From Terriglobales bacterium (GTDB lineage Bacteria > Acidobacteriota > Terriglobia > Terriglobales > Acidobacteriaceae), in assembly GCA_035543055.1 (NCBI GenBank), contig DATKKJ010000077.1, positions 1-41,723 of the forward strand: 41,723 nucleotides of DNA. Direction: 5' to 3'. The translations under genes were made by a program, and so were the position numbers. Below, one piece after another: positions 30,823-34,848 of the stretch. Each line of letters opens with the position of its first letter. Position 1 is the stretch's first letter. Below the pieces are notes generated by a model. It was given only the letters and a program-made list of their open reading frames with translations. It ran no database searches and was not told the DNA's origin.

Positions 30823-31773
30823 ATGCAGATCTTCCACCATCTCGAGGGAGTCCCCGCTGATTTCGGGCCAACCGTGCTCAGTGTGGGCAATTTCGACGGC
30901 GTCCACCGCGCGCATCATTACGTGCTGGGCGAGGTGGTGAAGCGGGCGCGAGAGATCGGCGGCCGCTCGATGGTGGTGACCTTCGACCCTCATCCCACGC
31001 GCATCCTGCGGCCTGACGTCGCCCCCAAGCTGATCACGCCGCTGCCGCGCAAGCTGGAGCTCCTGGCCGCGACCGGAGTCGATGCCACGCTGGTGCTTCC
31101 CTTCACTCGCGACCTCTCGCTCACCAGCGCGCAGGACTTTGCCCACCAGGTCCTGGGCAAGCGCCTGCACGCGCGTGAAGTGCACGAAGGCGAGAACTTC
31201 CACTTCGGGCATCGTGCCGCCGGCGACACCACGCGCCTCAAGGAATACGGTCGCGAAGCCGGATTCGAAGTGAAGGCTTATCCCTACATGAAGGTGCGGG
31301 GCGACAAGGTCTCCAGCAGCCGGATCCGCGAGCTCCTGCGCGACGGCAACGTCGGCCAGGCGCGGCATCTGCTGGGATGGGTATTCAGCCTAGTGAGCGC
31401 GCCGGGGCGCGGCCGTGGCTATGGCCACAAGTACACCGTCCCCACCATCAACCTCACGCGCTACGACGAGCTGGTCCCCAAGGACGGGGTGTACGTCACT
31501 CGCACCCAAGTGAACGGCGAATGCTTCGATTCCGTGACCAACGTCGGCACACGCCCGACCTTCGGCGCCGAATCGTTCGCCATCGAGACCCATCTGCTGA
31601 ATTTTCATCCCATCGCGCTGACCGCGGAGACCAAGGTGGAGCTTTGGTTCCTGAAGCGCCTGCGCGACGAGATGAGATTTCCCTCGGTGGACGATCTGCG
31701 GGCGCAAATCGCCAGGGACGTGAAGACAGCGCGGCGTTACTTCAACCTGCTGCCGCCGCTCACTCGCCCATAG
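30823..31773 (+). CDS. ribF: Bifunctional riboflavin kinase / FAD synthetase
   Basis: RibF phosphorylates riboflavin to FMN and adenylylates FMN to FAD. The 316-residue protein has the N-terminal nucleotidyltransferase domain (GNFDGVHRAHH, TFDPHPTR, SSSRIRELL) and the C-terminal flavokinase domain (GRGRGYGHKYTVPTINL, KDGVYVTRTQV, TNVGTRPTFG, IETHLLNF). The kinase motif reads PTIN where PTAN is usual, a mild change. It is the last gene of the group that begins at 28391; its stop overlaps the end of the convergent EamA gene by 14 bases. Confidence 0.95.
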   Translation: MQIFHHLEGVPADFGPTVLSVGNFDGVHRAHHYVLGEVVKRAREIGGRSMVVTFDPHPTRILRPDVAPKLITPLPRKLELLAATGVDATLVLPFTRDLSLTSAQDFAHQVLGKRLHAREVHEGENFHFGHRAAGDTTRLKEYGREAGFEVKAYPYMKVRGDKVSSSRIRELLRDGNVGQARHLLGWVFSLVSAPGRGRGYGHKYTVPTINLTRYDELVPKDGVYVTRTQVNGECFDSVTNVGTRPTFGAESFAIETHLLNFHPIALTAETKVELWFLKRLRDEMRFPSVDDLRAQIARDVKTARRYFNLLPPLTRP

Positions 31774-32722
31774 CCAGTGTGGGATCGGTGGCGGGAGCCT
31801 CGCCTCGCCGCTCCGGCAGTTGCACGATCACCGTCGCTACCACCACCAGCACGACCCCGAATATCTGCCACGGCAAGAGCCGCTCGGCAACGAAGGTCGC
31901 CGCGAACAGGATGGCAAAGACCGGCTCCAGACAGCTGGTGACAATGGCGCGAGTCGCGTCGAGATACTGCAGCCCGGCAAAATACAACGAGAACGGGAGC
32001 AGCACGGAGACGCAGGCGAAGACGAACAGGAACGCCCACTGCGCGCCGGAGTAGTGGGCCGCCGCGATCTTCCACGGGGGGTTGACGACCAGCCAGAACA
32101 AGACGGCGCCAAGAAGTACGTAGGTGAGAACGCGCCAGCGGTCGAAACGCGCGACCAGCCCGTGTCCGAAGACGTTGTAGAAAGCGAACGACAGGGCCGC
32201 TCCCTCGGCGGCGAGGACGCCGAGCGTATTCAGTCTCAGGCGGGCCTGCCCGCCGATCACCCCGATGGCCAGCGCACAGCCCGCGACCGCCGCCGCGACC
32301 GACAGCACGCGTGGCAAGGTCGCCCGCTGCTGTCGCCGCGCCACCAGGTACAGCAGCACCCACACCGGTGCGGTGTACTGCAGGATGATGGCGGTGGCGA
32401 CCGTGGTCTTCTCGATGGCGAAGTAATAAAGGAAATTCGAGGCGGCGACGCCCACCACGCCGACGATGAAGCATAGCGCCACATCCGCTCGCGGCAGAGA
32501 AAGCCCCGATCTTCCCCGCAGCATCAGCAGCAGGGGTGCGAGGACCAGGAGAGAGAACGTAGTGCGGGTCTGGGCCAGGATCAAGGGGTTGATCGGACTC
32601 ACTGCGCCACCGAGCAGGCGGCCGGTGAATACCAGCTTGCCGAGGGTGGCGGCGCCCCCCCAGCAGAACGCCGCTCCGGCGATCGCCAGGTATCCGCGCA
32701 GCGGGTGTCGCTCAGCGGGCAA
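31760..32722 (-). CDS. EamA/DMT family transporter
   Basis: A 320-residue inner-membrane permease with ten predicted helices in two EamA repeats (first GYLAIAGAAFCWGGAATLGKLVF; second about AEGAALSFAFYNVFGHGL onward, with LYFAGLQYLDATRAIVTSCLEPVFA and FGVVLVVVATVIV). Substrates of the family range from amino acids to metabolites and cannot be predicted. The frame is open to 32839, but that part overlaps the glutaredoxin-like gene in another frame and has no membrane character; I choose the TTG at 32722, behind a GAGG, which overlaps the end of the glutaredoxin gene by 11 bases. Confidence 0.88.
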   Translation of the reverse strand: MPAERHPLRGYLAIAGAAFCWGGAATLGKLVFTGRLLGGAVSPINPLILAQTRTTFSLLVLAPLLLMLRGRSGLSLPRADVALCFIVGVVGVAASNFLYYFAIEKTTVATAIILQYTAPVWVLLYLVARRQQRATLPRVLSVAAAVAGCALAIGVIGGQARLRLNTLGVLAAEGAALSFAFYNVFGHGLVARFDRWRVLTYVLLGAVLFWLVVNPPWKIAAAHYSGAQWAFLFVFACVSVLLPFSLYFAGLQYLDATRAIVTSCLEPVFAILFAATFVAERLLPWQIFGVVLVVVATVIVQLPERRGEAPATDPTLAMGE

Positions 32723-32951
32723 GGGCCTCGTCGATCTGCTCAGGATCGAACCCGACCAGCACCTGTTCGTCGATGACGATAGTGGGAGTCGCCCGGCTCC
32801 CGTAGGTCTCCACCAGTTCGCGCACCGCGCCGAAATCACTGCTGACGTCTTTGTCTTCGAATTGGATCCCTCTCTCCGAGAGGTAGGCCTTGGCCGTATA
32901 GCACGGCGGTCAGCCGGGTTGGCTGAAAACGATCACCCGCTTGTTGGTCAT
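32712..32951 (-). CDS. Glutaredoxin/NrdH-like selenoprotein candidate (in-frame TGA at the redox site)
   Basis: The frame from the ATG at 32951 reads MTNKRVIVFSQPG, then TGA (32910-32912, codon 14), then PPCYTAKAYLSERGIQFED and on to the TGA at 32712-32714, 79 residues in all. The second part holds the cis-proline motif ATPTIVI and the VGFDPEQIDEAL ending of glutaredoxin/NrdH-like proteins. The internal TGA falls exactly at the first cysteine of the CPPC-type active site, so selenocysteine (UPPC) is the natural reading; reading stops there in a normal translation. A possible SECIS hairpin lies downstream. It sits 37 bases after the OsmC-like gene and overlaps the EamA gene. The alternative is a nonsense mutation or a single-base error (TGC to TGA). 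Confidence 0.85.
32869..32883 (-). promoter_or_regulatory. Candidate bacterial SECIS hairpin
   Basis: On the minus strand CCTCTC, a 3-base loop GGA, and GAGAGG form a perfect 6-bp stem inside the coding sequence. The loop starts 32 bases after the in-frame TGA and has G in its first positions. This agrees with the general rule for bacterial SECIS elements (apical loop some 16-37 bases after UGA, with an early G). The two bases GG and CC further out could add a lower stem with an internal loop. A second hairpin, GCCGT-GCTAT-ACGGC at 32893-32907, begins just after the TGA and is probably too close. Confidence 0.5.
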
Positions 32952-32988: not shown

Positions 32989-33393
32989 TCATTTTTCGTC
33001 CAGCACCACAGAATACGTGATGCGCGCGGTCTTTTGTAGCATGGCGGCGACCGAGCAGTACTTCTCCTCGGAGAGGCGCACGGCGTCTTCGACCGCTTTC
33101 CTGCTGACCTTGCCCCGCACCCGGTACACCAGCTTGATCCGGGTATAGACCTTGGGAGGAGAGTCTGCCCGTTCCGCCTCGGCATGCACCTCGACCGCCC
33201 GAAAAGGTTCGCGCTTCTTGCTCAGGATGGTGACCACGTCCGAGGCCGTGCAGGAGCACAGGCCTTCAAGGACCAGCTCCACGGGGCTGTTGGCGGTCTT
33301 GGCCGCCCCTGCATCCACCACGACGGCGTGGCCGCTCGTGGCCTTGACCGTGAATCGTTCGTTGTCCATCCAGATGGCGCTTGCTTCCACCAT
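32989..33393 (-). CDS. OsmC-like peroxiredoxin family protein
   Basis: A 134-residue OsmC/Ohr superfamily protein, which normally reduces organic or lipid hydroperoxides using two cysteines. The core helix LEGLCSCTASDVVTILSKK carries Cys48 at the peroxidatic position, with Cys46 beside it; Cys113 in EEKYCSVAAML is the resolving position. The conserved Arg/Glu pair of true OsmC/Ohr is not obvious, so it fits the broader OsmC-like (YhfA-type) group. It lies 9 bases after the CDF transporter gene and just upstream of the glutaredoxin-like selenoprotein candidate, which could serve as its reductant; that link is inference. Confidence 0.9.
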   Translation of the reverse strand: MVEASAIWMDNERFTVKATSGHAVVVDAGAAKTANSPVELVLEGLCSCTASDVVTILSKKREPFRAVEVHAEAERADSPPKVYTRIKLVYRVRGKVSRKAVEDAVRLSEEKYCSVAAMLQKTARITYSVVLDEK

Positions 33394-33402
33394 GTCTCTC
33401 TC

Positions 33403-34848
33403 CTAGCGGCGGTTGTCGGTCAGGGGCTCGGTGTGGATGAGTACCTTGAAGAGCTCGGGCGCCGCCTGCTTGAAGCGGATCTCCAGCGCGGTGGAGACGT
33501 CGTGCACGCGCGCCAGGGGCAGCGAGTCCGGCATGGTGCAGTGGCAGGAAAGGTACAAGCGCTCGCCGACCTTCTTGAAGGTGAACTCGTGGGCGTCAAG
33601 GATCTCCGGGAATTGGGTCACGATGGTCTTCAGCTTGTTCTCCAGGCCGGAATCCACCATGACCGCATCCGGAGTCTCGATGGTGGCGGGCTCGCTCTCG
33701 ATGTGGGTCAGGATCGACGAGACCTCGGGAACGCTCTCGCGGATCTCCGCTTCGAGGCGGGTGACCGTATCGTGGGCGTCCTTCAGCGCCATGCGCTCAT
33801 CCAGTTCCAGGTGCTGCTCCACGTGGAGACGGCCGCCGAGGTCCTGGACGCTGACATCGTGGACGTTGAAGTTGTTGCGCGCCGCCACTCCACGGATGCG
33901 GTCGAAGATGTTCTCGCCCCTTACTTCTCGCGCGATTGGATGGACGACCACATCGGCGGCGGGGAGGATGCGCAGAACCGCGGAGGTGGCTGCGTCCACC
34001 ACCTGCTGCGACCGCTGGAAGGTGAGGTTGCGGCGCAGGGCGATGGAGAGGTCGGCGAAGTAGCGGTTGCCGGCGCGCCGAATGCGGGCGCGGTCCACCC
34101 CCAGCACACCGTCGAGCCCTGCGACCTCTTCGATCATCTTCGTCCGGACTCCCGACGGAGCGGCGTCGAGCAGGGCGTCGATGGTCTGCCGCGCCAGGCG
34201 CCAGCTCACGTACACCACGACCCCGGCCACGAAGAGCGCCGCGATGGGGTCGGCGTCGCGCAGCCACGGCAGGTCTAGGCGGTTGGGGTGGCCGAGTTCC
34301 ACCAGCACCAGGCCGAGGATGACTACCGAACTCGACCAGATGTCGGTGCTGAAGTGCAGGGCGTCGGCTTGCAGGGCCTGGCTGTCATACTTCAGGGCCA
34401 CCCGGCGGAGCGCGCGCGACCTCCAGGCATCGAGCCCGATGGATACGAACATCACGGCAAAGGCGGCGAGGCTGGCCTCGATCTCCACGTGCTTGAAGAA
34501 CAGGCGCTTGATCGCCTCATAGACGATCCAGACGCAGGTCAGCAGCAGCAGGCCGGTCTCGATGAAGGCGGAAAAATTCTCGACCTTCCCGTGGCCGTAT
34601 TGGTGGTCCGCATCGGCGGGCTTGTCGGAGACCCGGACGGAGAAAAAGGTGATGACGGCCGCGATCAAGTCGAGCCCGGAATGGGCCGCTTCCGAGAGGA
34701 TGCCCAGGCTGCCGGTACTGATGCCGACGACCACCTTCAGCAGCGTGATCCCGATAGCGGCCAGGACGGAATTCAGCGCCACCGCGCGCTTCTCGGCGCG
34801 CATGCCCTCCACTGCGAGCTGACCCGACGGGCTGACCATCCGGCCCAT
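33403..34848 (-). CDS. Cation diffusion facilitator (CDF) transporter with three C-terminal domains
   Basis: An inner-membrane divalent metal/proton antiporter (Zn, Fe, Mn or Co). Six helices lie within residues 25-220; the metal site shows His56/Asp60 (SEAAHSGLD) and His165/Asp169 (ALHFSTD), a His-Asp pair common in Zn/Fe carriers. Normal CDF proteins have about 300 residues with one cytoplasmic ferredoxin-like domain. Here 481 residues include three such segments in tandem, about 232-307, 312-389 and 401-476, each ending in a V-x-x-H-x-E/P-like strand (VVVHPI, LTHIESEP, LIHTEP). The ATG at 34848 has no clear Shine-Dalgarno; the ATG 15 codons on is an alternative. It is the first gene of the OsmC/glutaredoxin/EamA group. 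Confidence 0.92.
   Translation of the reverse strand: MGRMVSPSGQLAVEGMRAEKRAVALNSVLAAIGITLLKVVVGISTGSLGILSEAAHSGLDLIAAVITFFSVRVSDKPADADHQYGHGKVENFSAFIETGLLLLTCVWIVYEAIKRLFFKHVEIEASLAAFAVMFVSIGLDAWRSRALRRVALKYDSQALQADALHFSTDIWSSSVVILGLVLVELGHPNRLDLPWLRDADPIAALFVAGVVVYVSWRLARQTIDALLDAAPSGVRTKMIEEVAGLDGVLGVDRARIRRAGNRYFADLSIALRRNLTFQRSQQVVDAATSAVLRILPAADVVVHPIAREVRGENIFDRIRGVAARNNFNVHDVSVQDLGGRLHVEQHLELDERMALKDAHDTVTRLEAEIRESVPEVSSILTHIESEPATIETPDAVMVDSGLENKLKTIVTQFPEILDAHEFTFKKVGERLYLSCHCTMPDSLPLARVHDVSTALEIRFKQAAPELFKVLIHTEPLTDNRR

What the first reader, a model, noticed from the sequence alone, without database searches (positions are those of the whole stretch)
32712..32951. Glutaredoxin-like selenoprotein: in-frame TGA exactly at the redox cysteine
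Seen: codon 14 of a complete 79-codon glutaredoxin/NrdH-like frame is TGA, between Gly and Pro-Pro-Cys. Both sides keep family motifs (VIVFSQPG before; PPCYTAKAYL, ATPTIVI, VGFDPEQ after). TGA is used as a normal stop elsewhere in the window (mpl, ldcA), so this is not a general recoding. Known: Sec replaces the catalytic Cys in several thioredoxin-fold families. A random nonsense mutation would rarely hit this one codon and leave the rest of the frame intact. Standard gene callers split or miss such genes.
Basis: partly seen in the sequence, partly recalled or inferred. Interest (0 to 1): 0.92.

Follow-up and report, generated by a model that had tools for sequence, protein, structure and literature searches.

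The report
Selenocysteine glutaredoxin in an acidobacterium
A small redox protein (glutaredoxin) in this acidobacterial genome is very probably made with selenocysteine, the 21st amino acid, at its catalytic position; it is a convincing new member of an already known kind of bacterial selenoprotein.

Summary
On the minus strand, 32951..32712, lies an 80-codon glutaredoxin frame (79 aa) whose codon 14, the N-terminal residue of the U-P-P-C motif, is TGA (32912-32910). Orthologues in 42 further loci of the same order keep TGA at exactly this codon; 26 others have Cys there. All 41 other genomes with the TGA form carry selA, whereas 12 of the 26 with the Cys form lack it. A 6-bp hairpin with a GGA loop, 32 nt after the UGA, fits the published bacterial SECIS model. 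It is intact in 40 of 43 TGA forms, with compensatory changes, and in none of the 26 Cys forms. The genome has tRNA-Sec, selB and selD (selD itself with an in-frame TGA). selA is missing from the assembly only because a contig ends in its first codons. AlphaFold gives a glutaredoxin fold closest to BC3987 and to Clostridium oremlandii Grx1, a natural selenoprotein with Sec at the same column. UxxC glutaredoxin selenoproteins are an established family, so this is a new member of a known kind. It adds an acidobacterial lineage, a conserved CDF-OsmC-Grx-EamA neighbourhood, and a joint loss of UGA and SECIS in Cys relatives.

The parts
32712..32951 (-). Glutaredoxin-like selenoprotein gene, 79 codons plus TGA stop
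   Evidence: Translation with TGA=U; Pfam PF00462 E 5e-14, TIGR02196 E 3e-24; AlphaFold pLDDT 96; 43 TGA-bearing orthologous loci in the order
32910..32912 (-). In-frame UGA read as selenocysteine (Sec14 of the U14-P-P-C17 redox motif)
   Evidence: Cys codon TGC/TGT at this column in 26 orthologues
32869..32883 (-). SECIS hairpin CCUCUC-GGA-GAGAGG, inside the codons for Leu-Ser-Glu-Arg-Gly; apical loop 32 nt after the UGA
   Evidence: intact in 40/43 Sec forms and 0/26 Cys forms, with compensatory pairs C-G/U-A and U-A/G-C; fits the bSECIS model of PMC13188914
32875..32877 (-). [quoted passage not shown]
   Evidence: GGN in 42 of 43 Sec forms
32989..33393 (-). OsmC-like protein gene immediately upstream, same strand
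   Evidence: PF02566 E 9e-17; beside the Sec-Grx in most relatives examined
33403..34848 (-). Cation diffusion facilitator (CDF) transporter gene, upstream, same strand
   Evidence: TIGR01297 E 2e-74; conserved neighbour
31760..32722 (-). EamA-family transporter gene downstream; a possible TTG start at 32722 overlaps the end of the Grx frame (start inferred)
   Evidence: PF00892 E 4e-34; homologues begin within the Grx end in G001, G004 and G016

Best explanation
The gene encodes a dithiol-type glutaredoxin of the YruB/cGrx1 kind in which the attacking N-terminal cysteine of CxxC is selenocysteine (U14-P-P-C17). During translation, SelB with Sec-tRNA(Sec) binds the hairpin CCUCUC-GGA-GAGAGG, whose loop lies 32 nt downstream, and decodes the UGA at codon 14 as Sec instead of terminating. 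The product has a thioredoxin fold; Sec14 would act as a selenolate nucleophile and Cys17 as the resolving thiol in reducing disulfides or other oxidised substrates. Shown here: frame, fold prediction, conservation of UGA, Sec/Cys pairing, SECIS conservation with loss in Cys forms, and presence of the Sec machinery (selA only as a fragment at a contig end). Inferred: actual Sec insertion, the redox chemistry, and a functional link with the adjacent OsmC-like protein and transporters.
For: TGA at the same codon in 43 loci (42 genomes) and Cys at that column in 26. selA in 41/41 Sec-form genomes other than this one, against 14/26 Cys-form genomes, Fisher p 1.6e-6 uncorrected for kinship. Hairpin paired in 40/43 Sec forms and 0/26 Cys forms; energy difference p 1e-10. 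Compensatory CTC/AGA to CTT/AAA and TCG/AGA to GCG/CGA exchanges, each needing about 3 changes on the tree; covariation score above all 500 shuffles and all slid controls. The Arg codon inside the stem is AGA in 28 of 43 Sec forms, although AGA is 1.5% of Arg codons in the window. Only 0.08% of synonymous recodings of this stretch fold as well. tRNA-Sec with anticodon TCA; selB at E 1e-113; selD at E 3e-110 with its own TGA. A selA start is found at the end of contig C102. Closest solved structures are BC3987 and C. oremlandii Grx1, TM 0.84-0.90; the latter natively has Sec13 (construct U13C, PMC4479559).
Against: selA could not be read in full in this genome, because it falls in an assembly gap. 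Taken alone, a bSECIS-like hairpin is weak evidence: 15 of 966 TGAs in the window pass a loose filter. No Rfam SECIS family is hit. In three Sec forms (G015, G091, G124) the stem is not fully paired. Kinship-corrected independent pairs give only 4 contrasts, concordant in nearly all pairings, median p 0.125. There is no expression or protein evidence.
Confidence: 0.95

Rival explanations
1. Nonsense-mutated pseudogene: the TGA is a recent stop and the frame beyond it is decaying.
For: The gene would be truncated at 13 residues under the standard code.
Against: The same TGA is shared by 43 loci across many genera of the order with intact frames. Codons after the TGA diverge from the sister species mainly at third positions (6, 6, 18). 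The TGA falls on the catalytic residue and comes with a covarying hairpin.
Confidence: 0.01
2. UGA is read by something other than selenocysteine (near-cognate readthrough inserting Trp/Cys/Arg, or general UGA reassignment).
For: No direct protein evidence for Sec.
Against: TGA ends 11 of 20 long frames in the window, so there is no general reassignment. The genome has tRNA-Sec, selB, selD and the beginning of selA. The TGA form occurs only with selA, the alternative state is always Cys, and the hairpin is specific to TGA forms.
Confidence: 0.03
3. The hairpin is a by-product of conserved codons for Leu-Ser-Glu-Arg-Gly, not a SECIS.
For: The peptide is well conserved in Sec forms.
Against: Synonymous recodings reach this stability in 0.02-0.7% of draws in seven genomes. 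The rare AGA codon is favoured in Sec forms and CGC in Cys forms. A synonymous Leu change (CTC to CTT) tracks Arg-to-Lys (AGA to AAA) and keeps the pair.
Confidence: 0.03

Closest known systems
Selenoprotein glutaredoxin Grx1 of Clostridium oremlandii (cGrx1; PDB 7c10, PMC7642778, PMC4479559)
   Same: Small single-domain glutaredoxin; Sec at the N-terminal position of the UxxC motif, aligned with U14 here; 41-43% identity and TM 0.83-0.85 to the Cys form
   Different: Motif UPHC instead of UPPC; clostridial; SECIS not compared here
Bacterial selenoprotein glutaredoxin family (UxxC; Sargasso Sea 2005, PMC1088965; PMC1794560; PMC13188914)
   Same: PF00462, UxxC, Cys homologues, bSECIS downstream
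   Different: This is an acidobacterial clade in a CDF-OsmC-Grx-EamA neighbourhood; the papers read do not name Grx selenoproteins in Acidobacteriota
YruB-family glutaredoxin-like proteins (TIGR02196; structure BC3987, 3zij)
   Same: Best family model (85 bits) and best solved structure, TM 0.88-0.90
   Different: Score 3 bits under the curated cut-off; BC3987 has CPPC with Cys
UXX-star (seleno)proteins NF041212 / NF041211 / NF041114
   Same: Glutaredoxin-like with Sec at the same place; a weaker match (58 bits, below the cut-off of 66)
   Different: Listed motifs of UXX-star families are UxxT or GxGU, without the second Cys (PMC13188914); here it is UxxC

Membership tests
Bacterial selenoprotein | In-frame UGA with coding conservation on both sides | tested here: met
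Bacterial selenoprotein | Cys homologues at the UGA column (Sec/Cys pairs) | tested here: met
   26 Cys orthologues against 43 TGA loci; at least 4 Sec/Cys switches forced by supported branches of the tree
Bacterial selenoprotein | bSECIS: loop 3-9 nt, stem 4-16 bp, G in the first two loop positions, 16-37 nt from the UGA, MFE <= -7.5 kcal/mol (PMC13188914) | tested here: met
   Loop GGA, stem 6 bp, spacing 32 nt, hairpin alone -8.5 kcal/mol
Bacterial selenoprotein | selA, selB, selC and selD in the genome | tested here: inconclusive
   selB, selC and selD found. selA is not in the assembly, but contig C102 ends in the first codons of a selA start and the next syntenic contig resumes ~0.7 kb past where selA ends; sister G001 has it whole
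Bacterial selenoprotein | Sec shown in the protein (MS, 75Se) | not testable with these tools
   No protein data
Glutaredoxin (PF00462) | Glutaredoxin domain with thioredoxin fold, CxxC/UxxC at the start of helix 1, cis-Pro TP motif | tested here: met
   E 5e-14; pLDDT 96, helix from residue 15; T55-P56 invariant; PDB matches
NrdH-redoxin (TIGR02194) | Score over the curated cut-off | tested here: not met
   47.8 bits against 85.75
YruB-family glutaredoxin (TIGR02196) | Score over the curated cut-off | tested here: not met
   85.2 bits against 88.55: nearest, narrowly short
UXX-star | Score over the cut-off; Sec without a second Cys | tested here: not met
   57.8 bits against 66; Cys17 present

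The most novel reading that the evidence does not exclude
The clade forms a dedicated redox module of this acidobacterial order, in which the Sec-glutaredoxin is the reductant of the adjacent OsmC-like protein (with linked CDF and EamA transporters), and translation of the EamA start is coupled to successful UGA decoding so that the operon responds to selenium supply.
Probability: 0.15. Interest if true: 0.5.

Novelty: new member of a known kind. Interest (0 to 1): 0.35.

Why it matters
Standard gene callers miss or truncate such genes. The case extends Sec-glutaredoxins with strong comparative evidence to a large acidobacterial order. It also offers a natural experiment: Cys relatives have lost the SECIS hairpin, and only genomes with selA keep the UGA. 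The genetic principle itself is already known.

Tried and rejected
Absence of selA as a sign of another Sec-tRNA route: rejected, since contig C102 breaks inside the first codons of selA. Rfam for a SECIS family: no hit. The first hairpin right after the UGA (cols 6-20, GCCGUG/UACGGC): stable here but not kept in relatives, so not taken as the SECIS. bSECIS filter alone: unspecific, 15 of 966 TGAs in the window pass. Folding z-scores of the 43-80 nt region: unremarkable, -0.6 to -1.8; the signal is in conservation and synonymous-codon tests. The search for related loci on genome contigs found only 4 loci; whole-genome searches were far more productive. The 2011 paper on Clostridium Grx1 (PMC3062254) is not held.

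Full report
Observation. On the minus strand of the window, 32951..32712, a frame of 80 codons is open except for a TGA at codon 14 (32912-32910); it ends with a normal TGA. Read with Cys at codon 14 it matches Pfam Glutaredoxin at E 5e-14 and, best of all NCBIfam models, YruB-family glutaredoxin TIGR02196 (85.2 bits against a cut-off of 88.55). It is clearly below the cut-off of NrdH (47.8 against 85.75) and of UXX-star (57.8 against 66). TGA ends 11 of 20 long frames of the window, so there is no general recoding.

Origin. The window is contig C77 of a 3.32-Mb, 255-contig genome. Relatives fetched with names are Acidobacteria / Terriglobia / Acidobacteriales MAGs.

Conservation. Whole-genome searches of the relatives and the order found the gene with exactly one TGA inside in 42 genomes (43 loci), and with no stop in 26. 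Extracting the codon at the alignment column gave TGA in 43 loci and TGC/TGT in 26, with the flanking motif QPG-U/C-PPC kept in nearly all TGA forms. Sequence differences from the sister species are concentrated at third codon positions on both sides of the TGA. A tree of the protein, with the Sec/Cys column masked, needs 5 Sec/Cys changes, at least 4 forced by well-supported branches. One Cys form (G163, the same genome as L021) still sits beside the same EamA gene, so it is a likely positional orthologue. A sample of 396 genomes across the phylum gave close matches almost only in this family, with one TGA form elsewhere (G371, 45% identity).

Machinery. The genome has tRNA-Sec (63.1 bits, anticodon TCA), selB (E 1e-113) and selD (E 3e-110), the last with an in-frame TGA of its own (KAAGUASKLS). 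selA was not found. The sister species has it. Its neighbourhood maps in G000 to the end of contig C102 and the end of contig C143, and C102 stops in the first codons of a selA start (...VKAPTKADLYRKLP; the sister's match begins YRKLP). So selA very probably lies in the gap; its apparent absence is an artefact. Across genomes other than G000, 41 of 41 with the TGA form have selA, against 14 of 26 with the Cys form (Fisher p 1.6e-6, not corrected for kinship).

SECIS. Downstream of the UGA, columns 30-44 read CCUCUC-GGA-GAGAGG. [quoted passage not shown] The stem is fully paired in 40 of 43 TGA forms and in none of 26 Cys forms. Two pairs covary: C-G with U-A (34 and 8 sequences) and U-A with G-C (38 and 5). 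The first couples a synonymous Leu change (CTC/CTT) to Arg/Lys (AGA/AAA). Each needs about 3 changes on the tree, and a pair count on 14 sequences exceeds all 500 shuffles and all slid controls in the covariation score. AGA is 1.5% of Arg codons in the window but is used in 28 of 43 TGA forms at this place; in Cys forms CGC is commonest. Under synonymous recoding only 0.02-0.7% of draws fold as well in seven genomes tested. Caveat: a hairpin filter alone is unspecific, and kinship-corrected independent contrasts number only four, concordant in nearly all pairings.

Fold and closest known. AlphaFold gives a confident thioredoxin fold (pLDDT 96, pTM 0.86), with the UPPC motif at the start of helix 1. 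The nearest solved structures are BC3987 of the YruB kind (TM 0.88-0.90) and Clostridium oremlandii Grx1 (TM 0.84-0.85, 42-43% identity). C. oremlandii Grx1 natively has Sec at position 13: the published construct is U13C (PMC4479559). Position 13 aligns with U14 here. Glutaredoxin with UxxC is a recognised bacterial selenoprotein family (PMC1088965, PMC1794560, PMC13188914). None of the papers read names it in Acidobacteriota, though Acidobacteriota are known to have selenoproteins (PMC1794560, PMC12013277).

Neighbourhood. CDF transporter, OsmC-like protein, Sec-Grx and EamA transporter lie in a row on one strand here and in most TGA-form relatives examined. The neighbours are absent around the Cys form of G018 and around the divergent TGA forms of G026 and G015. 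In G001, G004 and G016 the EamA match begins within the end of the Grx frame, which may indicate translational coupling; this is inference. Function as a reductant of OsmC is likewise inference.

Verdict. The finding is real; the selenoprotein reading is supported at about 0.95. It is a new member of a known kind.

Noticed in passing
G000 contigs C102 (end, 10661) and C143 (L079, L080, L083): selA looks absent from a '100% complete' genome only because a contig breaks in its first codons; calling a Sec-negative state from MAGs would be wrong here.
   Followed up: yes
L015 1501-2424: selD of the same genome is itself a likely selenoprotein (in-frame TGA, AAGUASK), with a strong stem-loop after the UGA.
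   Followed up: partly
L038 (G015 C221) and G015:C107:16707-16892: A divergent UMFC glutaredoxin with TGA lies outside the conserved neighbourhood; a second stretch in the same genome matches with three TGAs, perhaps a decayed copy.
   Followed up: no
window 32712-32722: The EamA gene may start (TTG 32722) within the end of the glutaredoxin frame, so its translation could depend on UGA readthrough.
   Followed up: partly
G281 (L111, L112): Two TGA-bearing copies of the glutaredoxin on different contigs in one genome.
   Followed up: no
G007, G089, G091, G105, G124, G251, G252, G257, G286 selA: In several genomes the selA model's best match begins only at about position 135-141; in G007 the two parts lie in one frame with a spacer of about 110 bases, suggesting an insertion near residue 137.
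   Followed up: no
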